From Flavobacterium frigoris PS1 (GTDB lineage Bacteria > Bacteroidota > Bacteroidia > Flavobacteriales > Flavobacteriaceae), in contig NZ_AHKF01000010.1 of assembly GCF_000252125.1 (NCBI RefSeq), positions 62,001-126,000 of the forward strand: a stretch of 64,000 nt of DNA. Direction: 5' to 3'. Each line of letters opens with the position of its first letter. Within the stretch, counting starts at the first letter, position 1. The translations under genes and the position numbers were made by a program. Positions 3,830-38,705 of the stretch are shown one piece after another. The notes beneath the pieces are model-generated. The model did not search any database, had not been told where the DNA came from, and was given only the letters and a program-made list of their open reading frames with translations.

Positions 3830-3837
3830 TATTTTTG
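3830..3837 (+). promoter_or_regulatory. Bacteroidetes -7 box (TATTTTTG) before the SCO1 gene
   Basis: The octamer matches TAnnTTTG and lies about 16 nt upstream of the ATG at 3853. It overlaps a TTG that could be misread as a start at 3835. No well-spaced -33 element is obvious. Confidence 0.45.
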
Positions 3838-3852
3838 CGTAAATTATTTTCT

Positions 3853-4518
3853 ATGAAATCTATTTTAATTAAATACCGAATATTTTTCGGTGTTTTTTTC
3901 ACACTATCAGCTATTATTCTATACTTATTTTACACAGCTCTAAAACCAGTTAAAACGCTTCCTATATACAATCCGGCAGACGTAAATCCCGAGCTGGTTG
4001 ACAGTACCGTTCAGTATATCAGCAAATACCATACTATAGCTGATTTTTCTTTTGTGAACCAAAACGGAAAAACAATAACCCAAAAGGATTATGAAGGCAA
4101 GATATATGTTGCCGACTTTTTCTTCACCACCTGTCCTTCCATTTGTCCAAAAATGACAGCCAATTTATTTGATGTTCAAAAAGCCATTATCAATAACCCA
4201 AAAGTAATGTTACTTTCTCATACTGTCTTTCCTGAAAACGATAATGTTGCAGTTTTAAAAGCCTACGCAATTAAAAACGGAGTTGATGACAGCAAGTGGA
4301 ACTTAGTAACTGGGGACAAAAAAGAAATTTACACTATGGCCAGAAAATCCTATCTAGCCGTTAAAATGGGAAAACCAAACGAGCTATATGATATGGTTCA
4401 TACTGAAAATTTTGTGTTAGTAGATGCTAAAAGGAGAGTTCGTGGTTTTTATGACGGAACTAAAAAAGAAGACATTCAAAAACTAATAGAAGATATTAAT
4501 TTTTTAAGCAACGAATAG
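3853..4518 (+). CDS. SCO1/SenC family copper chaperone (thioredoxin fold)
   Basis: The ATG at 3853 is preferred to the upstream in-frame TTG at 3835, because that TTG lies inside a -7 promoter box. The 221-residue product has one N-terminal membrane anchor (about residues 7-25) and a thioredoxin-like domain carrying the copper site CPSIC (about 93-97) with the distant His in DMVHTENF (about 182). SCO proteins deliver copper to, or reduce, the CuA site of cytochrome c oxidase on the outer face of the cytoplasmic membrane. No oxidase genes are adjacent. The neighbour is the feo iron operon, so the link here is to metals in general. Redox function without copper delivery is possible. Confidence 0.92.
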   Translation: MKSILIKYRIFFGVFFTLSAIILYLFYTALKPVKTLPIYNPADVNPELVDSTVQYISKYHTIADFSFVNQNGKTITQKDYEGKIYVADFFFTTCPSICPKMTANLFDVQKAIINNPKVMLLSHTVFPENDNVAVLKAYAIKNGVDDSKWNLVTGDKKEIYTMARKSYLAVKMGKPNELYDMVHTENFVLVDAKRRVRGFYDGTKKEDIQKLIEDINFLSNE

Positions 4519-4610
4519 CCTCGCTTATTAGGAATTTTCATCGCTTCCAAACCCTAGTCAAAAGACTTCTTTTTTTACACCCTTGAAATAGTTTAAATAA
4601 GTTATAAAAG

Positions 4611-4622
4611 TGATAATTATCA
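4611..4622. promoter_or_regulatory. Fur-like palindrome at the feoA promoter
   Basis: TGATAATTATCA is a perfect 12-bp palindrome made of the GATAAT/ATTATC half-sites typical of Fur operators. It abuts the TTTG -33 element at 4623-4626, a position where a bound repressor would block RNA polymerase. Fur control of feo is well established in other bacteria; here it is inferred. Confidence 0.7.
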
Positions 4623-4652
4623 TTTGATTTAGTATTATAATATGTACTTTTG
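4623..4652 (+). promoter_or_regulatory. feoAB promoter (TTTG-N18-TACTTTTG)
   Basis: TTTG at 4623-4626 and TACTTTTG at 4645-4652 are 18 nt apart, matching the Bacteroidetes housekeeping promoter. Transcription would start about 20 nt before the feoA start codon. Confidence 0.75.
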
Positions 4653-4678
4653 CAATATTAATTCAATCTAAATAAGAC

Positions 4679-4918
4679 TTGCGAACAACGATAAATTCAC
4701 TTAAAAAAGGCGAGAAAGCCATTATCAAAGATTTTGATATTGACATTATTCCATTAAAACTTCTTGAAATGGGTTGCTTACCCGGAAATACGGTCGAATT
4801 GTTGCAAATCGCACCTTTTGGTGACCCTTTATATTTAGATATCAACGGCTCCCATTTAGCCATTCGCATTGAGACAGCTAAAGAGATTGAAGTTGAACTA
4901 ATAAAAATTACGCTTTAA
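4679..4918 (+). CDS. feoA: FeoA, ferrous iron transport accessory protein
   Basis: The 79-residue protein has the SH3-like FeoA fold: a start near MRTTINSLKKGEKAII, then the LLEMGCLPG and DPLYLDINGSHLAIR segments. It begins with TTG at 4679; no in-frame ATG lies near the N-terminus, and the promoter sits just upstream. FeoA is a small cytosolic partner thought to modulate the FeoB GTPase/transporter. Its stop codon overlaps the feoB ATG by one base (TAATG), which implies translational coupling. The Fur-like palindrome upstream suggests iron repression. Confidence 0.93.
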   Translation: MRTTINSLKKGEKAIIKDFDIDIIPLKLLEMGCLPGNTVELLQIAPFGDPLYLDINGSHLAIRIETAKEIEVELIKITL

Positions 4919-7017
4919 TGATCAACACTAATATCAATGTCGCCTTAATAGGTAATCCAAATACGGGTAAAACTTCTGTTTTTAACCAATTGACTGGACT
5001 GAACCAACAAGTAGGGAATTATCCTGGAATCACCGTTGAAAAGAAGATAGGTTTTTGCAAATTACCATATAATATAAAGGCAAACATTTTAGACTTACCA
5101 GGTACCTATAGCCTGAATGCTAGTTCGATTGACGAGAATGTCGTAATTGAATTGATGCTTAACAAAAATGATAAATTATATCCAGACGTAGCCCTAGTAG
5201 TTACAGATGTAGAAAATCTAAAGAGAAATTTACTTCTTTTCACCCAAATAAAAGACTTGGAAATCCCTACCATTCTAGTTATCAATATGGCAGACCGAAT
5301 GGAACACAAGGGGATCACTCTAAACATACCCTATCTTGAGGAACATTTAAAGACAAAAATTGCCCTTATCAGTTCCCGAAAAGGTTTTGGAATCACTGAG
5401 CTAAAAGAATTGATAGTCACCTATAAATCTATTTCAAGCGAACCTTGTTTGAATGCTTCAGTTATTGATACAGAATATTTCAACAGTCTGCGTAAAGCAT
5501 TTCCAAACCAGTTGTTATACAAACTGTGGTTAGTGATTACTCAAGATGTAAATTTCTTGAATTTAGAGCGTAAAGAGATTCAGGGTTCTTTTACTAAATC
5601 ACATTCCGATTTAAAGCGTTTACAACAAAAAGAAACGATCAAGCGATATCAGTTCATCAATGATGTACTGAAAGAGGGACTCAAAGTAGATGCGACATTA
5701 GCAAAAGATTTCAGAAGCAAACTGGATCGTGTTTTAACCCATAAAATATGGGGCTACGTAATTTTCTTTGCTATACTATTCGTTATTTTTCAATCCATTT
5801 TCGACTGGTCAAAAATTCCGATGGATTTCATTGACAGCACCTTTGCCTCATTAGGTACGTTAGCAAACGATTCACTGCCGTCTGGTGTTTTAACGAATTT
5901 GATTTCGCAGGGAATCATCCCCGGAATCGGTGGAATACTAATTTTTATACCGCAAATCGCGTTCTTATTTTTATTCATTTCCATATTAGAAGAAAGTGGC
6001 TATATGAGTAGAGTTGTTTTCTTGATGGATAAAATAATGCGTAAATTTGGTTTATCTGGAAAAAGTGTTGTTCCCTTAATTTCAGGGACTGCTTGCGCTA
6101 TACCGGCTATTATGGCAACGCGAAATATTGAAAATTGGAAAGAACGCTTAATTACCATTCTGGTAACACCATTTACAACTTGCTCCGCACGACTACCTGT
6201 TTACGCAATTATAATAGCATTGGTAATTCCAGATACTCGTGTATTTGGTATCTTTAATCTTCAAGGATTGACGTTAATGCTATTGTATCTTTTGGGTTTT
6301 GGTATGGCTATATTTTCAGCTCATATTTTAAATAAAATTTTAAAAATAAAAGGGAAGACGTTTTTTGTGGTTGAAATGCCAAACTACAAATTGCCAATGT
6401 TCAAAAACGTAGCAATCAACGTCATTGAAAAAACCAAAGCTTTCGTTTTTGGAGCGGGGAAAATAATTTTAGCTATATCAATAGTTCTATGGTTTATGGC
6501 ATCTTATGGTCCAGGTGAAGAATTTAATAACGCTGATGAAATAATACGCACTACGACTGACAATACTACTCTGACGCAACAACAGCTACAAAACAAAGTG
6601 GCCTCATATAAACTTGAGAATTCTTATATTGGAATTATGGGAAAAACGATTGAACCCGCAATCTCGCCTTTAGGATATGATTGGAAGATTGGGATTGCAG
6701 TTTTAACTTCCTTTGCGGCTAGAGAGGTCTTTGTAGGTACCTTAGCCACCATATATAGTGTAGGCGACAGTGACAATGAAGACACGATAAAAAATAAAAT
6801 GGCTGCTGAAATCAACCCCGTAACAGGAAAGAAAATATTCAACTTTGCCTCAGGAATCTCATTGTTGTTATTTTATGCTTTTGCTTTACAATGTGCCAGC
6901 ACTTTAGCTATTACCCGAAAAGAAACCAATTCCTGGAAATGGCCTCTGGGACAACTTATTTTCATGAGTGGATTTGCTTATGTTTTGGCATTGATTGCCT
7001 ATCAAATTTTAAAATAA
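4918..7017 (+). CDS. feoB: FeoB, ferrous iron transporter (G-protein domain plus permease)
   Basis: The 699-residue protein has an N-terminal cytosolic GTPase domain with G1 GNPNTGKTS (about 12-20), the switch threonine in NYPGITVE, G3 DLPGTY (about 59-64) and G4 NMAD (about 122-125). A helical linker follows, then the membrane domain with two Gate regions that include SGTACAIPAIMATR and TTCSARLPVY. It imports Fe2+ across the cytoplasmic membrane. The start overlaps the feoA stop by one base. A small Cys-rich membrane peptide gene follows 6 nt after the stop, completing an operon of feoA, feoB and that gene. Length and motifs are typical. Confidence 0.97.
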   Translation: MINTNINVALIGNPNTGKTSVFNQLTGLNQQVGNYPGITVEKKIGFCKLPYNIKANILDLPGTYSLNASSIDENVVIELMLNKNDKLYPDVALVVTDVENLKRNLLLFTQIKDLEIPTILVINMADRMEHKGITLNIPYLEEHLKTKIALISSRKGFGITELKELIVTYKSISSEPCLNASVIDTEYFNSLRKAFPNQLLYKLWLVITQDVNFLNLERKEIQGSFTKSHSDLKRLQQKETIKRYQFINDVLKEGLKVDATLAKDFRSKLDRVLTHKIWGYVIFFAILFVIFQSIFDWSKIPMDFIDSTFASLGTLANDSLPSGVLTNLISQGIIPGIGGILIFIPQIAFLFLFISILEESGYMSRVVFLMDKIMRKFGLSGKSVVPLISGTACAIPAIMATRNIENWKERLITILVTPFTTCSARLPVYAIIIALVIPDTRVFGIFNLQGLTLMLLYLLGFGMAIFSAHILNKILKIKGKTFFVVEMPNYKLPMFKNVAINVIEKTKAFVFGAGKIILAISIVLWFMASYGPGEEFNNADEIIRTTTDNTTLTQQQLQNKVASYKLENSYIGIMGKTIEPAISPLGYDWKIGIAVLTSFAAREVFVGTLATIYSVGDSDNEDTIKNKMAAEINPVTGKKIFNFASGISLLLFYAFALQCASTLAITRKETNSWKWPLGQLIFMSGFAYVLALIAYQILK

Positions 7018-7023
7018 ATAGTT

Positions 7024-7149
7024 ATGCTTCAAGAAATTATAGCTTTTACGGCACTCGGAATTGCGCTTGCATTTCTGATAAAAAAATTCTTTTTCAAAAA
7101 GAAAAAATCCGACAAAAATTGTGGAGACGACGACTGTGGTTGTCACTAA
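7024..7149 (+). CDS. FeoB-associated Cys-rich membrane peptide (41 aa)
   Basis: An ATG six bases after the feoB stop opens a 41-codon reading frame. The product has one hydrophobic helix (about residues 4-19), a run of Lys and Phe, and a tail with the pattern C-x4-CGCH. This layout of one transmembrane segment, a basic stretch and a short Cys-rich C-terminus downstream of feoB fits the FeoB-associated Cys-rich membrane protein family, thought to stand in for FeoC in many bacteria. The Cys cluster could bind iron or sense redox state; that is inference. The gene is easily missed because of its size. Confidence 0.83.
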   Translation: MLQEIIAFTALGIALAFLIKKFFFKKKKSDKNCGDDDCGCH

Positions 7150-7271
7150 GAAATAAATAGTTACAGTACGCCTTAAGCAAAAAGAGAGAAACAATACGGT
7201 ATTTTACCTTCAAAAACCTGGTCACTCTAAAAGCGCAAACCAGCTAAATCCTCATTAAAAAAAATCCCCTT

Positions 7272-7304
7272 AATTTAAGTTAATTAATTTATATTAACTA
7301 AATT
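7272..7304. repeat. AT-rich imperfect inverted repeat
   Basis: The arms AATTTAAGTTAAT (7272-7284) and ATTAACTAAATT (7293-7304) pair with one bulged base around an 8-nt spacer. There is no T-tract, so a terminator is unlikely. It could be a protein-binding site or simply AT-rich chance. Confidence 0.35.
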
Positions 7305-7722
7305 TACATAGCGCTTATCCGTAGTTAAAGCCTTAAGGTCAGTTATTTACAGCACCTACTCTGTTAATACATTGGATTTGAATATAATTTCAAGCCTATC
7401 AGCTCTACTCCTACAAAAGCTAATGAAATTGCGTAGCAAGTATAAAAAGGCAATAAAAACACCCCAACACAAATTAATTTTACTGGAAAAAACTACTATA
7501 TCACAAGTAGAACTTTACATCCAAATAAAAAATTATAGTTCTCACGGTTGCTATAACAATTGTGTCTGAACTACTCAATTAAACCTAAATAGATACAGCT
7601 AGCTATTATGAAAATAAAAAGAGACTCCTTTTGATTTCCTGACGAAATCTATAATACGCTGCTTATAAAAAATGCTTAGTCAAGTCGCCAAATGAGAATT
7701 TCATACAATTATTATGTTGCAA

Positions 7723-7737
7723 TTGATTTTAAATCAA
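7723..7737. promoter_or_regulatory. 15-bp palindrome just upstream of the TonB receptor gene
   Basis: TTGATTT-T-AAATCAA has perfect 7-bp arms around a single central base and ends 21 nt before the ATG at 7759. Its position suits an operator in the promoter or leader of the receptor/YfiR/sensor cluster. No regulator gene for it is identified. Confidence 0.45.
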
Positions 7738-7758
7738 AAGGACCAATAACAACTAATT

Positions 7759-10620
7759 ATGAAAAAATTTGTCTTACTATTATTAATACTAAACATGAGC
7801 TCGCTTTATTCACAAAAAGCGATCTCCGGCTATGTATTAAACAATGCCGGCTATGGTCTGTCAGGCGCTAACATAACCGAAAAAGGCACAACTAACAGTG
7901 TCTCGACCGATATCAATGGAGCGTACAGAATTCTTGTTAGAGAGCAAGCTACTTTAGTCTTTAGTTATTATAGTTTCCCTAAACAAGAATACGGCGCTAC
8001 AGAATCAATTTTAAACGTCATTTTATCTGAAGAAGGAGGACAAAATCCTAATGAAATTGTAGTTACAGGAACAAGAGCGGCACCAAGAAGCAATACTACA
8101 ACCGCGCTCCACATAGATGTGTTGTCATTTGAAGATCTCAGTTCGACTGGACAAATAACTTTCGATAAAGCATTGCAGCACCTCATACCTTCTTTTAACA
8201 CGGTTCAAACACCCGTAAATGACGCCACCTCCTTACTTGACCCCTATGAAATTAGGAATATGGGACCTAGCAGGACATTAATTCTTATCAACGGAAAACG
8301 AAAAAACTTAAGCTCTCTACTCTATGTTCAAACATCTCCTGGTCAGGGAGAAACTGCTACTGATCTTTCTGCAATTCCAATTGACGCCATTGAAAGTGTG
8401 GAGATTCTGAGAGATGGTGCATCAGCACAATACGGTTCTGATGCTATAGCTGGGGTTATAAATATTATTTTAAAAAAGAGAACGGGTAATGGTACAGCAA
8501 CGCTAAAAACTGGCATTACAGCCAAAGGAGATGGTGAAATGATGGGGGTTATTTTAAATAATGGATCTACAGTTGGCGATAGAGGATTTGTCAATTACAC
8601 CCTCGATTTCTCAAAAGTAAATATGACAAACCGAGCTGGAAAAGTAGATGCACAAGGAGATTTTAATGATCTTATCGCCATATCACCTAACAACCCGGCT
8701 AGTTATGTGAATAATGACAATACACTTAATGGCACCAACATTACCGGATTGAATGAAAATCAAATCACGGCTCTATTCGAAGACTACAAAGGTTCTCCTG
8801 ATTACAATGCAAAATTGGCTACTATAAACCAAGGAAACAGCATAGGAAGAAATACTGTTGATTCATTTTTACAGGAAAATCCAGACGGCGGAAATATCAA
8901 TGGATCTCCAGAAACAGCATCTGCAAAATTCTTGGTAAACGGTGGATTAACCCTATCCAATCAAACACAATTATATTACAATGCCGCTTACAGCTATAAA
9001 AAGGTAAACTCATTTGCGAATTACAGAACCCCATATTGGAGATCGATCAAGAACCCCTTTGAAAACCCCAATATTCCAAACTGGAGTACGGCAGCAGTGT
9101 ATCCAACCTATTTGAAGGATTTCTTTGGTGATGGTACAGCGGCTTCCTATAAGGGTTACCATCCCACATTTACAGGCGACTTAAACGATTACAACGCCAC
9201 CTTGGGCTATGCAACTATAAAGAATGGCTGGAATACCGATGCTAGCATAACCATCGGTGGGAATACCCAAACTTATACTGTAGAAAACTCGCAAAACAGC
9301 TCGAATATAAAAAACAGTAACGAACTCAATATCTACCAAGAAAATAGTCCTATCTATTTTAAACCAGGTGCTGCTTCGTTTAATCATATTGTAGGTAACT
9401 TGGATATGTCTAAGGTACTTTCGGATAAAATGAGCATTGGATTTGGTTCAGAGTTTAGATCCGAAACCTTTAAAATTGTCGAGGGAGACAAAGCTTCTTG
9501 GGATGGAGCGGGTGCCGATTCTTTTTCTGGTAATAGACCCGAGGACTCTGGAAAATGGAACCGCTACAATTTAGGCGGATATATTGATCTTGCTTATGAT
9601 TTTAATAATGACTTTCTAGTAAACGGCACAGTACGCTACGAAAATTACAGCGATTTCGGTGGAGCCACAGTTTGGAAGCTGAGCTCCCGTTATAAATTTG
9701 CTAATGATAAAGTCACATTAAGAGGATCTGTTTCTACAGGATTTAGAGCACCAACCTTACATCAAATTTTTTCTCAAAAATCACAGTATGCTTTCATGCC
9801 AGGCAAAGGTATACAAATCAGCGGCTTAATAAACAACATTTCAGTGCAAGCACGAGCTCTAGGGATTCCCAAATTAGACGCTGAAAAATCAACAAATATA
9901 ACCATAGGAATTGGAGCTAAACCATTAAAGGAATTTAACCTCACCTTAGATTACTATAATATTAAGTTGGAAGACAGAATTATCCTGGGAGACAACGTTC
10001 AGACACAATTTGGAACTGTCACTTGGTTTGAAAATTCATTTGACACTAGAACTTCGGGTTTAGACTTAGTCTTGAATTACGGCAATTTAGAAATAGGATT
10101 TGGTGAATTAGGGTTTGACTTATCCGGAAACATAACTTTCGAAAACAAGAGAATTTCGCCTGTAGCAAGCGGTAATTTTGGACCTACACTTGATGCTTTA
10201 ATGTTTACATCAAGACCCAAAACAAAATGGGTTTTAGGAACAACTTATAAAATTAGAAATATCGAACTGTTCCTTAACAATACGTATTTTGGAAAAACAA
10301 CATTCAAACAAGATGGTTTGGATCCTAATTTAAAGACCGAGTTTACACCAAAAGTTGTCACTGATCTAGGAATACATTATGCTGCAACAGATAAATTTAC
10401 AGTAGCATTAAATGTGAACAATTTGCTGAATGTAATGCCTGAATGGAAATTTAAGGCTGAAAACGCGACTGGAAGTGCAATTTTAAATGACCTAAATCAA
10501 ATAAAATCGCAATTCAACCTAATTACATTCAATGGCCGATATTCCCAAATGACCTATGAAGGCTATCACTTTAGCCAGCTAGGTACCCTATTAAGTTTAA
10601 CATTAATCTATAAATTTTAA
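7759..10620 (+). CDS. TonB-dependent outer-membrane receptor with CarboxypepD-like N-domain
   Basis: The 953-residue product has a signal peptide (about 1-18), a carboxypeptidase-regulatory-like domain (AISGYVLNNAGYGLSGANI, about 21-90), a TonB-box-like stretch around NEIVVTGTR, a plug domain with VEILRDGASAQYGSDAIAG, and a beta-barrel ending in the aromatic TLIYKF. Such receptors import siderophores, vitamins, oligosaccharides or similar ligands using TonB energy. No SusD partner is adjacent. Instead a YfiR-like protein and a membrane sensor follow on the same strand, suggesting that uptake or occupancy is coupled to signalling. The substrate cannot be told from sequence. Confidence 0.93.
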   Translation: MKKFVLLLLILNMSSLYSQKAISGYVLNNAGYGLSGANITEKGTTNSVSTDINGAYRILVREQATLVFSYYSFPKQEYGATESILNVILSEEGGQNPNEIVVTGTRAAPRSNTTTALHIDVLSFEDLSSTGQITFDKALQHLIPSFNTVQTPVNDATSLLDPYEIRNMGPSRTLILINGKRKNLSSLLYVQTSPGQGETATDLSAIPIDAIESVEILRDGASAQYGSDAIAGVINIILKKRTGNGTATLKTGITAKGDGEMMGVILNNGSTVGDRGFVNYTLDFSKVNMTNRAGKVDAQGDFNDLIAISPNNPASYVNNDNTLNGTNITGLNENQITALFEDYKGSPDYNAKLATINQGNSIGRNTVDSFLQENPDGGNINGSPETASAKFLVNGGLTLSNQTQLYYNAAYSYKKVNSFANYRTPYWRSIKNPFENPNIPNWSTAAVYPTYLKDFFGDGTAASYKGYHPTFTGDLNDYNATLGYATIKNGWNTDASITIGGNTQTYTVENSQNSSNIKNSNELNIYQENSPIYFKPGAASFNHIVGNLDMSKVLSDKMSIGFGSEFRSETFKIVEGDKASWDGAGADSFSGNRPEDSGKWNRYNLGGYIDLAYDFNNDFLVNGTVRYENYSDFGGATVWKLSSRYKFANDKVTLRGSVSTGFRAPTLHQIFSQKSQYAFMPGKGIQISGLINNISVQARALGIPKLDAEKSTNITIGIGAKPLKEFNLTLDYYNIKLEDRIILGDNVQTQFGTVTWFENSFDTRTSGLDLVLNYGNLEIGFGELGFDLSGNITFENKRISPVASGNFGPTLDALMFTSRPKTKWVLGTTYKIRNIELFLNNTYFGKTTFKQDGLDPNLKTEFTPKVVTDLGIHYAATDKFTVALNVNNLLNVMPEWKFKAENATGSAILNDLNQIKSQFNLITFNGRYSQMTYEGYHFSQLGTLLSLTLIYKF

Positions 10621-10674
10621 TTTATTTAAAAAAACAATTAAAGAGACCGTAAAACATAATTAAAACTAAAAGAT

Positions 10675-11196
10675 ATGATACTTAAACAATACCTGTTTTA
10701 TTTGATTCTACTTGTCATGTTGATGGAAGGGAATCAAATATCAGCCCAAGAGCAAGCTGGCGGGAAGGATTACGCTTTAAAAGCTGATTTTCTGTATCGT
10801 TTTGTTGATTATGTGTATTGGGAAAATTATTCCAAGGAACAAACATTTAAGATTGCAGTATTAGAAAATAGTCCTATTACTTCTTCATTGTTAAAAGCAA
10901 CTAAAAACAAAAAAATTGACATTAAGCAATATAAAAACATGAGGGAGATCCCTACTTGCCACATTCTATTTATTCCTTACAACTGTAGTATTCCAATCGA
11001 AACCATACTTTCCAATTTCTCTGGTAGGCCAATATTAATAGTCACTGAACAAAATGGCGACGGAAAAAAAGGAGCACATATGAATTTTGTTATGATGGAC
11101 AATAAATTAAAATTTGAGGTAAACTTAAAAGCAATAAACAAGACCGGAATAGGAATTAGCTCCTTCTTGTTACAACATGCCATTATTGTGCAGTAA
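10675..11196 (+). CDS. YfiR/DUF4154-type periplasmic protein
   Basis: The 173-residue product has a signal peptide (about 1-25) and the DUF4154 pattern: KADFLYRFVDYVYW near the mature N-terminus, FKIAVLENSPI, a central CHILFIP segment, PILIVTEQNGDGKKGAHMNF, and KLKFEVNLKAINKTGIGIS near the end. In Pseudomonas, YfiR is a periplasmic repressor of the membrane cyclase YfiN. The next gene has a YfiN-like sensory region, so this protein probably regulates that sensor; this is inferred from context. It lies 54 nt after the TonB receptor gene and probably shares its transcript. Confidence 0.85.
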   Translation: MILKQYLFYLILLVMLMEGNQISAQEQAGGKDYALKADFLYRFVDYVYWENYSKEQTFKIAVLENSPITSSLLKATKNKKIDIKQYKNMREIPTCHILFIPYNCSIPIETILSNFSGRPILIVTEQNGDGKKGAHMNFVMMDNKLKFEVNLKAINKTGIGISSFLLQHAIIVQ

Positions 11197-11320
11197 TTCA
11201 TTAAATTTACATTGTTTGAGGAATGCGATTTTGATTAACAACGCTAATGAATACAACTTAAAACTGCTATAACGTCTTAAGACTATGGTTAGTTTTAGAG
11301 TTGAAAAAAAAACAAAATAA

Positions 11321-13780
11321 ATGATAAATCTACGCAACATTTCTATTAAAAATAAACTGGTTCTGATGCAGGTTTTTACCTCTGCATTTGTATTAGGAAT
11401 CTGCATTGCAGCATTTGTAATAATCAATATTAAAGGATTTAAAGACCGAAAAGTGGTTAGTTCAACAGCGATCGCTCAAGTAATCGGCTTTAATAGTGCT
11501 TCTGCCATCGATTTTTTAGACAATGCAGCCGCCGAAAAAATCCTATCGGAACTAAAAGTACAAAATGACATCTTGAATGCAGTTATACTTGATAAAAACG
11601 GAAAGGCTTTTGCTTCTTATACCAAGCCAGGATCTGATCCTACTTATAAATTCTCTGTTCCAGAAATGAATCAAAATAAGTCCCTGTTTACTAGTCAACA
11701 CCTTTTTGTTTATAGCGAAATAAAGAAAGACAATGAGACAATAGGATATGTTTGCATCCGCTTTGAACTAACTGAATTAAGTAGAATAAAAATGGATGTG
11801 CTAAGCCTAGGCGTTATTTTGCTACTATTGGGAATCGGGCTTGCTTTTTTAATTGCCATGATAATTAAAAAATACATTTCAAAACCCATCTTAAACCTTA
11901 TAGACATCACTCAAAAAATAAAAGAAACTGCTGATTATAAAATCAGAATGACTGTTGAAGGAAAAGATGAAATTAGCGTTCTTGCCTCTGGCTTTAATGA
12001 CATGTTAGAAAACATTGAAAAAAGGGACAATGAAGTCGCCAAATCTAAAGGGCAATTAGATGAGCAAAACACCCTTTTACAATCCGTTATACAAAATATG
12101 GGAGATGGGTTAGTAGTTTCTGATGAGAACGGAAAATTCATCATTTGGAACCCCGCCTCCGAAAAAATAATAGGAATTGGACTTTTAGATATTCCTGAAG
12201 AGAAATGGGCTGACACTTATGGCGTCTATTGGCCCGACACCAAAATTAGGATGAATACAAATGACCTTCCTTTGGTCAAAGCCATACATGGCGAAGACGT
12301 TGATGATATGGAACTGTTTATTCAAAACTACAGAAAAACCGAAGGTAATTTCGTTATAATGTCGGCCAGACCACTAAAAGACTCAACAGGTAAAATCACA
12401 GGGGCCGTCGCTGTTTTTCACGACATCACTGAAAGAAAAAACTCAGAAAATCTTATAAAAAAACTAAATGAAGAGCTAGAAAAAAAGGTAACCGAACGTA
12501 CCGCTCAATTAGCAGAAGCCATAGAAACGCTGCAAACAAGCGAAGAAAAATACCGTGAAATAGTCGAAAACACAAGTGATGTAGTTCATACCACTGATTA
12601 TAAAGGAAACGTAACTTATATCAATCCCGCTTGTGAAAAACTAACTGGTTATACCCAAAAAGAATTGACAGGCACCAATATTTCTGACCTTGTTGCTCCG
12701 GAATGGAGAGAGCGTGTAAACGAATTTTACCTAAATCAATTCAAACATAAGATCGACGAGACCTTATTTGCATTTCCAATAATCACTAAATCTAGAACAC
12801 AAAAATGGGTGGAGCAAACCGTAAAACAGTTGAGGGAAGGCAATAGGATCACTGGTCATAAATCGATTATGCGAGACATTACGGACCGAAAAACCGCAGA
12901 ACAAAAATTAAAAGAAAGCGAAGGTCAGTTGCAAACCATATTTAACGAGGCACCAGATGCCTTAATTGTAATAAATGAAGAGGGAAATATTATTAGATGG
13001 AATCCAAAAGCTGAAAAAATATTCGGATGGTCGTTAGCCGAGGTTTTAGGTAAACCTATGACCGATTTAATTATTCCAGAACAGCATAGAGAAAGTCTTG
13101 CCAAAGAGTTTAAAACTTTTGTTTTAACCGGAAAAAGTCCCATAATAAACAAAACAATACAAATCACCGGCCTTAATAAAAACGGCTTAGAGTTTGACAT
13201 TGAGTTTACGGCCTCCCCTGCCAGAATATTGGGTAGCTACATCTTTATCGCCTTTATCAAAGACATTTCTGAAAGCAAAAAAATGGAAAATCAGAAAATT
13301 GAGGCCGATAGATTGGTACGTCAAAACGAACTAAAATTAAAATTGATTTTAGAAAACATTGGTGAGGGAATTATTGTTACCGATACACAAAAAAGAATTG
13401 TTCTTTCCAATCATATGGCGGAAGAAATTATAGGAATAAAACAAGATTCAGAAATACCTACCACCCTCGATTGGTCTGCGGAATATGAACTATATTATCC
13501 TGATGAAAAAACCATTTTCCCTGCACAAAATCTTCCTTTAGACAAAGCATTACGGGGCGAATCAACCGATGATGTTGAAATAATAATTGCGAATCCCGAA
13601 ACAAATACTAAAAAACGAGTTTTAATAAGCGGAAGGCCTATCGTTGATGAAAACAACTACGTAATTGCTGCCGTTGCAAATATAAAAGACATCACTTCTT
13701 ACAAGCAGCTTGAGGTAGCATTGGAGGAAAGTGAAAAGAAATACCGGAAATTAATAGGCTTCAAAAGCGATGAAAAATAA
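11321..13780 (+). CDS. Membrane sensor: CHASE8-like, HAMP and four PAS domains, no output domain
   Basis: The 819-residue protein has a transmembrane helix (about 12-36), a periplasmic CHASE8-like region (about 37-150), a second helix (about 158-182), a HAMP domain (to about 236), a coiled coil and four PAS units starting near 251, 407, 532 and 667. Several end in typical PAC motifs (VFHDITERK, IMRDITDRK, IKDISESK). It then reads EESEKKYRKLIGF, which looks like the opening of a fifth PAS domain, and stops 7 residues later. No histidine kinase, GGDEF or receiver domain follows. The convergent neighbour leaves no room for one, so the gene appears truncated at its 3' end or works as a PAS scaffold. 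Confidence 0.88.
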   Translation: MINLRNISIKNKLVLMQVFTSAFVLGICIAAFVIINIKGFKDRKVVSSTAIAQVIGFNSASAIDFLDNAAAEKILSELKVQNDILNAVILDKNGKAFASYTKPGSDPTYKFSVPEMNQNKSLFTSQHLFVYSEIKKDNETIGYVCIRFELTELSRIKMDVLSLGVILLLLGIGLAFLIAMIIKKYISKPILNLIDITQKIKETADYKIRMTVEGKDEISVLASGFNDMLENIEKRDNEVAKSKGQLDEQNTLLQSVIQNMGDGLVVSDENGKFIIWNPASEKIIGIGLLDIPEEKWADTYGVYWPDTKIRMNTNDLPLVKAIHGEDVDDMELFIQNYRKTEGNFVIMSARPLKDSTGKITGAVAVFHDITERKNSENLIKKLNEELEKKVTERTAQLAEAIETLQTSEEKYREIVENTSDVVHTTDYKGNVTYINPACEKLTGYTQKELTGTNISDLVAPEWRERVNEFYLNQFKHKIDETLFAFPIITKSRTQKWVEQTVKQLREGNRITGHKSIMRDITDRKTAEQKLKESEGQLQTIFNEAPDALIVINEEGNIIRWNPKAEKIFGWSLAEVLGKPMTDLIIPEQHRESLAKEFKTFVLTGKSPIINKTIQITGLNKNGLEFDIEFTASPARILGSYIFIAFIKDISESKKMENQKIEADRLVRQNELKLKLILENIGEGIIVTDTQKRIVLSNHMAEEIIGIKQDSEIPTTLDWSAEYELYYPDEKTIFPAQNLPLDKALRGESTDDVEIIIANPETNTKKRVLISGRPIVDENNYVIAAVANIKDITSYKQLEVALEESEKKYRKLIGFKSDEK

Positions 13781-13797
13781 CTGAGATTATTATATAC

Positions 13798-14208
13798 CTA
13801 CTTGACATAAGCTATACGTATGTAGTAATTTTTAGATTTGATTTTAACTCCCTCTTTTGGATATGGAAAGACTTCTATGTTTTGTATGTTTCTATTATCA
13901 GCTCGCAAATATTGCGAAAACCACGCTATGTTTTTCTGGCTGTCAGTCTCTGAAATGGTCAAAGTCTCTTCCTTTATGATTTTTTTATCCAGATATACAG
14001 TTATCACAACTTTTATCTCACCAGCCCAAACACAGTTTACACCAACCGGACAGCGCGAATCTGACAGAACTTCTTTAAATGTTAAAAAATCCCCTTTTTT
14101 CTTTATACAGCTATTTTGCTTGATTTTTAGATAACTGACATCCTTATTATTCTGGCCAAATAAAGAAAAGCTAAAAACTAGTATACCGGCAAAAAGAATA
14201 TTCTTCAT
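13798..14208 (-). CDS. Small secreted protein with DSRCPxGxxCxWAG motif, function unknown
   Basis: The 136-residue product has a signal peptide ending near FGQ (about 1-19) and a compact domain with the motif SDSRCPVGVNCVWAGE at about residues 49-64; the two Cys could form a disulfide. Short exported Bacteroidetes proteins with this motif are recurrent, but I know of no established function. It faces the truncated sensor convergently, only 17 nt away, and lies downstream of mntR on the same strand after a 47-nt gap, so it might be read through from the mntH-mntR unit. Confidence 0.75.
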   Translation of the reverse strand: MKNILFAGILVFSFSLFGQNNKDVSYLKIKQNSCIKKKGDFLTFKEVLSDSRCPVGVNCVWAGEIKVVITVYLDKKIIKEETLTISETDSQKNIAWFSQYLRADNRNIQNIEVFPYPKEGVKIKSKNYYIRIAYVK

Positions 14209-14255
14209 TTAAATTTAATTATCATTTAATTATATCAAATATAACTTGATTCAAT

Positions 14256-14909
14256 CTAGGTCGTTTCTACGAAAAGATTGCTGGCAATTTTATTCGAAAT
14301 CGTCAAAACGGCACCATCGACATTGATTTTGAATGATAGATCAAAAGTTTCTTTACTTAGAATTTCTATTTTGGATCCCAAAGCAATTTTTTGCTTGTCC
14401 AAGTATTTCAAAAATTCAGATGAAGTATCCTTCACTCCCACACAAATCCCTTTTTGCTTAGCGGAAAGCTCGGAAAGCAATTGCTTTTCAATTTTGAGTA
14501 TCTGTCCTTCCGCATTTGGGATTGGGTCACCGTGTGGATCTGTGGTTGGGTTACCCAGAAAATCATCCAATTTATTAATCAGCTTTTCTGACTTTATATG
14601 TTCTAATTGCTCGGCAATATCGTGTACCTCATCCCAAGAAAAATCTAACTTTTCTACTAAGAAAACTTCCCAAAGACGGTGTTTTCTAACTATCATTTTT
14701 GCAGCTAGTTTTCCTTTTTCCGTTAAGGAAACCCCTTGGTATTTTTTATAGTTCACCAAGTCTTTTTCGGCCAGTTTTTTAATCATATCTGTTACCGAGG
14801 AAGCTTTAGTTTCCATCATTTCAGCAATGGCGTTTGTGCTCACCGCAGAATTTGAAACGACTGTGATATGGTAAATGGTTTTAAGATAGTTTTCTTCTGA
14901 AAATGTCAT
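14256..14909 (-). CDS. mntR: MntR/DtxR-family metal-dependent repressor
   Basis: The 217-residue protein has an N-terminal winged helix-turn-helix (about 1-62, with SSVTDMIKKLAEKDLVNY), a dimerisation and metal-binding domain (KHRLWEVFLVEKLDFSWDEV, then EQLEHIKSEKL; about 65-140) and a C-terminal FeoA/SH3-like domain (about 145-215). DtxR-family proteins bind Mn2+ or Fe2+ and repress metal uptake genes. It follows the Nramp transporter gene on the same strand, which favours Mn2+ sensing, although iron sensing cannot be excluded. A candidate operator lies upstream of the transporter at 16930-16945. Confidence 0.88.
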   Translation of the reverse strand: MTFSEENYLKTIYHITVVSNSAVSTNAIAEMMETKASSVTDMIKKLAEKDLVNYKKYQGVSLTEKGKLAAKMIVRKHRLWEVFLVEKLDFSWDEVHDIAEQLEHIKSEKLINKLDDFLGNPTTDPHGDPIPNAEGQILKIEKQLLSELSAKQKGICVGVKDTSSEFLKYLDKQKIALGSKIEILSKETFDLSFKINVDGAVLTISNKIASNLFVETT

Positions 14910-14921
14910 TTTTTTATTTTT

Positions 14922-14997
14922 TTAGCCCCGATAGCACCTTTATCTTTTTTCCTTTAAAAAGATAAAGATATAGCGCATAGCGAGAAAAAGCTTCTAA
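14922..14997 (+). repeat. Dispersed palindromic element, copy A
   Basis: The ends match the other copies: TTAGCCCCGATAG at the left and GATATAGCGCATAGC, then TTCTAA, at the right. The central hairpin pairs CTTTATCTTTTT with AAAAAGATAAAG, 12 bp. It lies between mntH and mntR and opposes their transcription. Confidence 0.75.
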
Positions 14998-18808: not shown

Positions 18809-18887
18809 TAGCTATTTCCAGCTGTCCATTATATCTTTTCCTGGCTAAAGAAGCCAGTAAAAGAATGCCGTTCCCATCTGTGCTAAA
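18809..18887 (-). repeat. Dispersed palindromic element, copy B
   Basis: Read on the minus strand it has the shared left end (TTAGCACAGATGGGAACGGC), a central hairpin CTTTTaCTGGCT/AGCCAGgAAAAG with loop TCTTT, and the shared right end GATATAATGGACAGCTGGAA followed by TAGCTA. It lies right after the bacilliredoxin terminator. Confidence 0.8.
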
Positions 18888-18955
18888 AGATATTTTGCAC
18901 GAAATAGAGAAAAGTTGTATATATTGGAGTAAAACAACTAATAGTTAAAGCTAAT

Positions 18956-20361: not shown

Positions 20362-20397
20362 ATAATACTACAAATCGTTATCGCTAAACTTATTCCC

Positions 20398-20478
20398 TAG
20401 CCCAGATTGCAGCGACATCCTCTTGTGGTAGCGATAGTTAACACAAGAGATATAGCGGAAAGCTAGATAAAGCTCCTA
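20398..20478 (+). repeat. Dispersed palindromic element, copy C
   Basis: The left end is TAGCCCAGATTGCAGCGACA, the central stem TCTTGTG/CACAAGA has a longer loop, and the right end is GATATAGCGGAAAGCTAGAT followed by AAAGCTCCTA. This is the only copy here that runs in the same direction as both flanking genes. Confidence 0.8.
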
Positions 20479-31106: not shown

Positions 31107-31185
31107 TTAGGAGCTATTTCCAGCTATACGCTATATCTTTATGGTTGAAACCCAACCATAAAGGATAACGCTACTATCTGGGCTA
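31107..31185 (-). repeat. Dispersed palindromic element, copy D
   Basis: On the minus strand it reads TAGCCCAGATAGTAGCG at the left, the perfect 11-bp central stem CTTTATGGTTG/CAACCATAAAG with loop GGTTT, and GATATAGCGTATAGCTGGAA followed by ATAGCTCCTAA. It begins 6 nt after the PBP1A stop codon. Confidence 0.85.
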
Positions 31186-31223
31186 GATCAATACTATTAA
31201 TTAGATCATTAGAACCAAATTAT

Positions 31224-38618: not shown

Positions 38619-38623
38619 GTTTT

Positions 38624-38705
38624 TTAGCCCTGATGGCAGTGGCATCCTTTTTTTGCCTTCTTTAGGCAAGGAAAGATATAACGAACAGCAGGAATTAGCT
38701 CCTAA
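38624..38705 (+). repeat. Dispersed palindromic element, copy E
   Basis: The left end is TTAGCCCTGATGGCAGTGGC, followed by ATCC; the central hairpin TTTTTTTGCCT/AGGCAAGGAAA has loop TCTTT; the right end is GATATAACGAACAGCAGGAA followed by TTAGCTCCTAA. It opposes the flanking genes. Its loop and adjacent bases match copy B. Confidence 0.85.

What the first reader, a model, noticed from the sequence alone, without database searches (positions are those of the whole stretch)
7759..13780. TonB receptor, YfiR-like protein and CHASE8/HAMP/PAS sensor as one signalling cassette
In Pseudomonas the YfiB-YfiR-YfiN system joins an OmpA lipoprotein, a periplasmic repressor and a CHASE8-HAMP-GGDEF cyclase. 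Here the repressor and CHASE8-like/HAMP parts are kept, but the outer-membrane partner is a TonB-dependent receptor and the cytosolic part is a chain of PAS domains. This suggests a system linking outer-membrane uptake or ligand occupancy to a membrane sensor.
Basis: partly seen in the sequence, partly recalled or inferred. Interest (0 to 1): 0.65.

Follow-up and report, generated by a model that had tools for sequence, protein, structure and literature searches.

The report
Kinase-less YfiR sensor beside TonB receptor
Some Flavobacterium genomes place an outer-membrane uptake receptor, a periplasmic repressor and a membrane sensor in a row; the layout is a known kind, but this sensor has no signalling enzyme of its own and ends in a strictly conserved tail, so its partner inside the cell is an open, testable question.

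Summary
In detail: TonB receptor (7759-10620), YfiR/DUF4154 (10675-11196) and a CHASE8-HAMP-4xPAS protein (11321-13780) lie in a row. Of 18 Flavobacterium genomes with DUF4154 above cut-off (398 searched), 14 hold the trio, 3 hold YfiR+sensor without the receptor, 1 holds YfiR+kinase. In the phylum, 12 of 20 fetched DUF4154 loci have a TonB receptor upstream and 11 a histidine kinase downstream (2 more are YfiR-kinase fusions). NCBIfam already models such a trio, so the layout is known. The residues mapped in Pseudomonas for YfiR-YfiN binding are kept on both sides; YfiR very likely controls this sensor. The unusual part is the sensor: 17 of 17 orthologs end, with no kinase or cyclase, in KYR(K/N)LIGFK, under purifying selection (dN/dS about 0.06). 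Kinase-less membrane PAS arrays elsewhere share the tail (29 to 33 of 329 Flavobacterium genomes; none in 96 other genera of the order sample). The nearest relative head (47% identity) carries HisKA-HATPase. The receptor is a duplicate of a resident Flavobacterium receptor, probably captured later. Best reading: a YfiR-type trans-envelope switch with a swapped input and an output delivered in trans. Receptor contact and the output partner are inferred, not shown.

The parts
7759..10620 (+). TonB-dependent receptor, 953 aa, with N-terminal CarboxypepD_reg-like domain, plug and barrel
   Evidence: Pfam; trio clade nested among resident Flavobacterium receptors
10675..11196 (+). YfiR-like periplasmic protein (DUF4154), 173 aa
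   Evidence: Pfam; model mean pLDDT 84.4; Foldseek best match P. aeruginosa YfiR 4zhu, E 4.3e-7, TM 0.65/0.74; profile match to YfiR chains 5.1e-11
11321..13780 (+). Membrane sensor, 819 aa, without an output domain
11426..11794 (+). Periplasmic CHASE8 region (residues about 36-158); Phe65 aligns with the Phe of the YfiN AAVVF motif
11870..12040 (+). HAMP domain (residues about 184-240)
12068..13696 (+). Four PAS domains (residues about 250-792)
   Evidence: Pfam; secondary structure of the model, (mean pLDDT 68.4, pTM 0.30, low)
13697..13765 (+). C-terminal helix and conserved tail KYRKLIGFK (residues about 793-815)
   Evidence: 17 of 17 orthologs; tail family
4918..7017 (+). FeoB, resident left neighbour of the insertion site (not part of the cassette)
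   Evidence: Pfam; synteny
14256..14909 (-). MntR-like repressor, resident right neighbour of the insertion site (not part of the cassette)
   Evidence: Pfam, NCBIfam; synteny

Best explanation
A YfiR-type trans-envelope switch whose two ends have been exchanged. YfiR (periplasm) binds the CHASE8 head of the inner-membrane sensor and holds it in one state, as YfiR does with YfiN in Pseudomonas (pairing and conserved contact faces shown; binding inferred). An outer-membrane event at the TonB receptor next door (ligand occupancy or uptake, in a metal-uptake neighbourhood) frees or removes YfiR (inferred). The head then shifts HAMP and the PAS chain. As the sensor has no kinase, cyclase or other output domain, the change is read by a separate protein that docks on the last PAS domain and the free helix KYR(K/N)LIGFK, most likely a PAS-containing histidine kinase made elsewhere (absence of output and conservation of the tail shown; partner inferred). 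The YfiR+head core resembles kinase cassettes of other Bacteroidota; in Flavobacterium the kinase body was replaced by a PAS array with the tail that is shared with a family of other kinase-less PAS proteins, and a duplicate of a resident TonB receptor was placed in front.
For: Gene order: 14 of 18 genomes. Pair YfiR+sensor kept in 17 of 18, also in the 3 loci without receptor. Contact faces: sensor Phe65, aligned with the Phe of the AAVVF motif that YfiN mutations mark as the YfiR site, is Phe in 28 of 28 heads; on YfiR, Phe147 (PA Phe162) 27 of 30, Glu148 (PA Glu163) 26 of 30, Asn150 30 of 30 (literature passages). YfiR-kinase fusions in 2 of 20 phylum loci. Nearest relative head, L179, 47% identical over residues 1-248, continues into HisKA-HATPase and stands in a receptor-YfiR-kinase row. 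No output domain and no room for one: the next gene, convergent, starts 17 bases after the stop in the window. Tail kept in 17 of 17; 46 of 50 pattern loci carry it at the C-terminus of an open frame, none with a kinase motif; reversed-pattern control 0. dN/dS about 0.06.
Against: No partner was found. The neighbours of the tail-bearing paralogs showed no recurring signalling gene (judged from first residues; Pfam on two of these neighbours gave UPF0176/rhodanese). The window's own genome has no second tail-bearing protein, so a paralog is not a required partner. The receptor is absent in 3 of 17 and there is no receptor domain common to the Flavobacterium and the other cassettes that could bind YfiR. 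The structural disulfide of Pseudomonas YfiR is lost. I may not know an unrecognised output function in the PAS array.
Confidence: 0.5

Rival explanations
1. YfiR and the sensor are a pair, but the TonB receptor is only a neighbour: a second copy of a resident receptor that landed in a metal-uptake region and shares expression, not signalling.
For: Receptor absent in 3 of 17 loci; in the YfiR tree two of these branch early (98/94 and 92/86) and the third is nested, so it was gained after the pair and lost once. It is a duplicate of a free-standing receptor found in genomes without the trio. Neighbours are FeoB, MntR and an NRAMP transporter.
Against: A receptor lies directly upstream of YfiR in 12 of 20 phylum loci and downstream in 1 more, from other receptor families; so receptors came to stand next to YfiR more than once. 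NCBIfam has a receptor model of the same locus family.
Confidence: 0.3
2. The sensor is a dominant-negative or decoy remnant: a former kinase that lost its catalytic part and now titrates YfiR or blocks other PAS kinases.
For: Head of a kinase relative and stop inside a PAS N-cap fit a truncation.
Against: PAS1-PAS4 show no relaxation (dN/dS about 0.06; PAS4 86% and tail 97.5% mean pairwise identity, higher than the CHASE8 head at 72%); a simple titrator would not need the PAS4/tail end. Related kinase-less proteins keep the same end. One apparently broken copy exists (L209, not followed up).
Confidence: 0.15
3. The PAS array itself is the output: a membrane scaffold or redox/ligand sensor that acts through an unrecognised activity or binds a non-kinase target (for example a regulator of metal uptake).
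For: Four to six PAS domains and no known enzyme in the family; fixed place between feoB and mntR in most genomes with the trio.
Against: PAS domains act through partners as a rule (established knowledge); no additional domain seen in the model (low confidence); paralogs with the tail lie at other loci.
Confidence: 0.15

Closest known systems
YfiBNR (TpbB/DgcN) system of Pseudomonas and E. coli
   Same: YfiR fold and C-terminal contact face; CHASE8-type periplasmic domain with the AAVVF-position Phe; HAMP; gene pair YfiR+sensor.
   Different: No YfiB at the locus, no GGDEF, structural Cys145-Cys152 pair replaced (Gly130, Asn137), a TonB receptor instead of an OmpA/Pal lipoprotein.
NCBIfam trio: TOL_0244 TonB-dependent receptor (NF053590), TOL_0243 YfiR-like protein (NF053591), sensor histidine kinase near YfiR-like (NF053592)
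   Same: Same gene order and same kind of YfiR and sensor head (E 2.5e-26 and 1e-45). Phylum locus L083 passes all three cut-offs (752/645, 143/125, 219/194).
   Different: Window proteins fall below the cut-offs (YfiR 92.5 of 125, head 156 of 194), the receptor model is not among the receptor's reported families, and the kinase is absent.
YfiR-YfiN[PAS] modular core of Malone et al. 2012 (PMC3375315)
   Same: Paper states that the core is joined to different outputs in distant species, including histidine kinases, GGDEF-EAL, HPT and MCP (section 12 read whole, passage of section 13).
   Different: TonB and Bacteroid- do not occur in its main text; an output-less sensor is not mentioned in the parts I read.
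FecA-FecR-FecI type surface signalling by TonB receptors (recalled)
   Same: A TonB receptor passes a signal through the periplasm to an inner-membrane protein.
   Different: No FecR or sigma factor among the Pfam hits of the seven window proteins tested and no STN domain on the receptor.

Membership tests
YfiBNR | YfiR protein with YfiR fold | tested here: met
   DUF4154 1.4e-31; Foldseek TM 0.65/0.74 to 4zhu; profile 5.1e-11
YfiBNR | Mapped YfiR-YfiN contact residues on both partners | tested here: met
   Sensor Phe65 in 28 of 28 heads; YfiR Phe147 27/30, Glu148 26/30, Ile154 Ile in 16/30 (others Ala, Leu, Val, Phe). Conservation only, no binding test
YfiBNR | Diguanylate cyclase (GGDEF) output | tested here: not met
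   No GGDEF in Pfam scan
YfiBNR | YfiB OmpA/Pal lipoprotein encoded with the pair | tested here: not met
   None among the seven proteins of the locus scanned; the rest of the genome was not searched for it
YfiBNR | Structural disulfide Cys145-Cys152 of YfiR | tested here: not met
   Gly130 and Asn137 in the window; Cys in 2 and 1 of 30 rows
NCBIfam TOL_0244/TOL_0243/HK-near-YfiR-like trio | Each protein above the curated cut-off | tested here: not met
   92.5 of 125, 156 of 194, receptor model not reported at E 1e-5
NCBIfam TOL_0244/TOL_0243/HK-near-YfiR-like trio | Sensor is a histidine kinase | tested here: not met
   No HisKA/HATPase
Two-component histidine kinase | HisKA and HATPase domains | tested here: not met
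FecARI-type surface signalling | STN domain on receptor, FecR anti-sigma and ECF sigma gene nearby | tested here: not met
   Pfam on seven proteins of 3835-14909; other parts of the genome not searched
Kinase-less tail-bearing PAS arrays (this report) | 2 TM or CHASE8 head, PAS repeats, C-terminal KYRxLIGF(K/R), no output | tested here: met
All of the above | Physical contact YfiR-sensor, YfiR-receptor, tail-partner | not testable with these tools
   No complex prediction or wet experiment on hand

The most novel reading that the evidence does not exclude
Flavobacterium holds a family of kinase-less membrane receptors, split-receptor hubs, that end in a free PAS N-cap helix (KYRxLIGF[K/R]) and switch a separate kinase in trans; the window's member was made by putting a YfiR-controlled head on such a body, so that a TonB receptor, a periplasmic repressor and a detached kinase form one three-membrane-compartment relay.
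Probability: 0.35. Interest if true: 0.75.

Novelty: new variant of a known kind. Interest (0 to 1): 0.55.

Why it matters
The receptor-YfiR-kinase cassette seems widespread in Bacteroidota but, by my searches of open full text, no paper describes it; NCBIfam has only models. It would be a second way, besides anti-sigma surface signalling, by which TonB receptors report to the cytoplasm. The sensor without an output domain asks a sharp question: what reads it? The tail gives a handle for a pull-down.

Tried and rejected
Truncation or assembly error: rejected, since the same stop is found in 17 of 17 orthologs in separate genomes and the frame is under purifying selection. Hidden output domain: none by Pfam, NCBIfam hits only cover head and PAS parts (best 25 of 35 shown), none in the model, whose confidence is low. 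Hetero-oligomer with the tail-bearing paralog as a required partner: rejected for the window's genome, which has no second tail; 3 of the 17 genomes lack one by the strict pattern. Partner from gene neighbourhood of the paralogs: no lead. Chance adjacency of receptors: Fisher test gave 14 of 80 near genes against 2 of 141 far genes, p 1.8e-5, but the receptor profile was built mostly from the near receptors, so this is biased and I do not lean on it. TonB receptor ligand: plug matches siderophore and B12 receptors generally, no ligand named. Regulatory sites: promoter-like matches not above shuffles (22 against 25.7), no terminator-like site on the + strand in 7000-14300. Literature on TonB with YfiR: 5 papers share both words, none relevant by listing.

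Limits: the 20 phylum loci were picked by me, mostly from the best scores, out of the 37 other genomes over cut-off; only one locus per genome was taken. L092 and parts of others were not scanned with Pfam. Two of the three receptor-less genomes are 81-82% complete, though the locus itself is unbroken there between feoB and yfiR.

Full report
What is there. The window lies in a genome of 3.93 Mb in 52 contigs; five Flavo-1 RNAs and close relatives among named Flavobacterium species (best 93% to F. degerlachei) place it in Flavobacterium. The trio stands at the stated coordinates with the stated domains. The sensor consists of TM1, CHASE8, TM2, HAMP and four PAS domains and stops at residue 819. 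Pfam finds no output family. A model of the whole sensor is of low confidence (mean pLDDT 68.4, pTM 0.30) but shows only PAS folds and a last helix at 792-811.

Conservation in the genus. DUF4154 is above cut-off in 18 of 398 Flavobacterium genomes including the window's own. I read 20 kb around the other 17 (one contig was 6.4 kb). Thirteen of them plus the window hold receptor-YfiR-sensor (14 of 18). Three (L069, L071, L077) hold YfiR and sensor without the receptor. One (L063) holds an unrelated-looking YfiR (22% identity) with a CHASE8-HAMP-HisKA-HATPase kinase. In the order sample DUF4154 was over cut-off in 2 of 395 genomes, both Flavobacterium, 1 of 108 genera. A scan of named genomes with the sensor alignment gave 13 full-length matches, 12 labelled Flavobacterium and one Flavobacteriaceae MAG, plus three weaker ones.

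The site. In most genomes with the trio it sits between feoB and mntR/nramp. Of ten genomes without the trio, seven have mntR in the stretch downstream of feoB without it, in one case with 125 bases between (L244), and three do not have mntR there. So the cassette is an insertion, or was lost, at this junction.

The wider cassette. In the phylum sample 38 of 395 genomes are over cut-off. Of 20 loci that I fetched, 12 have a TonB receptor upstream of YfiR (in L080 with a 123-aa ORF between), one has it downstream (L087), seven have none (L084, L085, L089, L090, L091, L092, L096). Eleven have a HisKA-HATPase kinase next, nine of these with CHASE8 at 1e-5; L085 has CHASE8-HAMP-PAS cut by the contig end; in L098 and L099 DUF4154 is fused to PAS-HisKA-HATPase, behind a receptor. 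NCBIfam has models for a receptor, a YfiR-like protein and a kinase of this kind; L083 passes all three cut-offs, the window's proteins do not. The kind is therefore known to annotators; I found no paper on it.

YfiR and the head. The YfiR model (mean pLDDT 84.4) matches Pseudomonas YfiR structures best. Malone et al. 2012 (PMC3375315; section 12 read, passages elsewhere) map the YfiR site on YfiN to AAVVF with a protruding Phe, and the YfiN site on YfiR to a C-terminal hydrophobic face with Phe162, Glu163 and Ile169; structures (PMC4655355 and PMC4887326, passages only) show that Glu163 and Ile169 also touch YfiB. Aligned with E. coli K-12 YfiR and DgcN, the sensor's Phe65 is Phe in 28 of 28 heads; YfiR Phe147 in 27 of 30, Glu148 in 26 of 30, Asn150 in 30 of 30, while Ile154 is Ile in 16 of 30. 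The structural disulfide is gone. I take it as likely that YfiR binds and controls this sensor.

The missing output. All 17 sensors end in KYR(K/N)LIGFK plus 1 to 4 residues. Mean pairwise identity is 97.5% in the tail, 86% in PAS4 and 72% in CHASE8; dN/dS is 0.058-0.070 in five pairs. The end resembles the N-cap of the protein's own PAS2 (SEEKYREIV against SEKKYRKLI; read from the sequence), as if a fifth PAS had been cut off and the stub kept. Proteins of 610-859 aa with two TM helices and PAS repeats, 38-49% identical to the sensor's last part in the best cases, end the same way and also lack an output. The tail as a DNA pattern hits 18 of 24 chosen genomes, 33 of 329 in the genus and 3 of 326 in the order, all three Flavobacterium, 1 of 97 genera; the reversed control is 0 in the rows shown. 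Of 50 pattern loci, 46 carry the tail 10-37 residues before the stop of an open frame without any of four kinase motifs; in 4 (L193, L200, L204, L205) I found no such frame, which leaves 29 of 329 genomes. Fourteen of the 17 genomes with the sensor have another tail-bearing protein, three including the window's do not.

Origins. L179, a Sphingobacteriales MAG, has receptor, YfiR and a head 47% identical to the window's, followed directly by HisKA-HATPase. In the YfiR tree it is sister to the Flavobacterium group (99/97); the receptor-less L069 and L077 branch first (98/94 and 92/86; the fork that joins L069 is weak, 83/15), L071 is nested beside L066. The trio receptors form one clade (100/100) next to free-standing Flavobacterium receptors and far from the other cassette receptors, with long branches among the latter. 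So the pair came first, the receptor was captured later and lost once. That receptors came to stand beside YfiR from separate families is an argument for function, but not proof.

Verdict. A YfiR-type switch with an exchanged input and no output domain of its own. The row is known; the kinase-less, tail-bearing sensor is the new part. Steps shown: order, domains, fold, conserved faces, absence of output, selection, tail family. Steps inferred: YfiR repression here, signal from the receptor, partner in trans.

Noticed in passing
window 14920-14991, 18811-18888, 20395-20473, 31113-31188, 38622-38699: Five Flavo-1 RNAs in one 64-kb window.
   Followed up: no
window 7024-7149: Small Cys-rich ORF directly after feoB, weak FeoB_associated match (2e-4, below cut-off).
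   Followed up: no
window 7296: Short element AACTAAATTTACA about 460 bases before the receptor start; found by exact pattern in 9 of 17 loci (window and L064-L079), twice in L078 where the second copy precedes yfiR.
   Followed up: partly
L098, L099: YfiR (DUF4154) fused to PAS-HisKA-HATPase, behind a TonB receptor.
   Followed up: partly
L089, L090: YfiR genes without a sensor, beside an M42 peptidase and a Peripla_BP_2 protein.
   Followed up: no
L063: A Flavobacterium with a separate YfiR lineage and a CHASE8-HAMP kinase that keeps HisKA-HATPase, no receptor upstream.
   Followed up: partly
L209: Sensor-type tail on an open frame of only 240 aa in a genome without DUF4154 over cut-off: perhaps a broken copy.
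   Followed up: no
L074 against L075: 98-100% identity over receptor and YfiR (apart from one 300-base step at 96%) drops to 89-95% within the sensor, which suggests a recombination break near the sensor's start.
   Followed up: partly
L190 3916-7084: A tail-bearing PAS-array paralog that appears in three pieces.
   Followed up: no
PDB 5z6v, 6k1x, 8wgl: A Rhodothermus marinus 'substrate-binding protein' is a structural neighbour of the window's YfiR.
   Followed up: no
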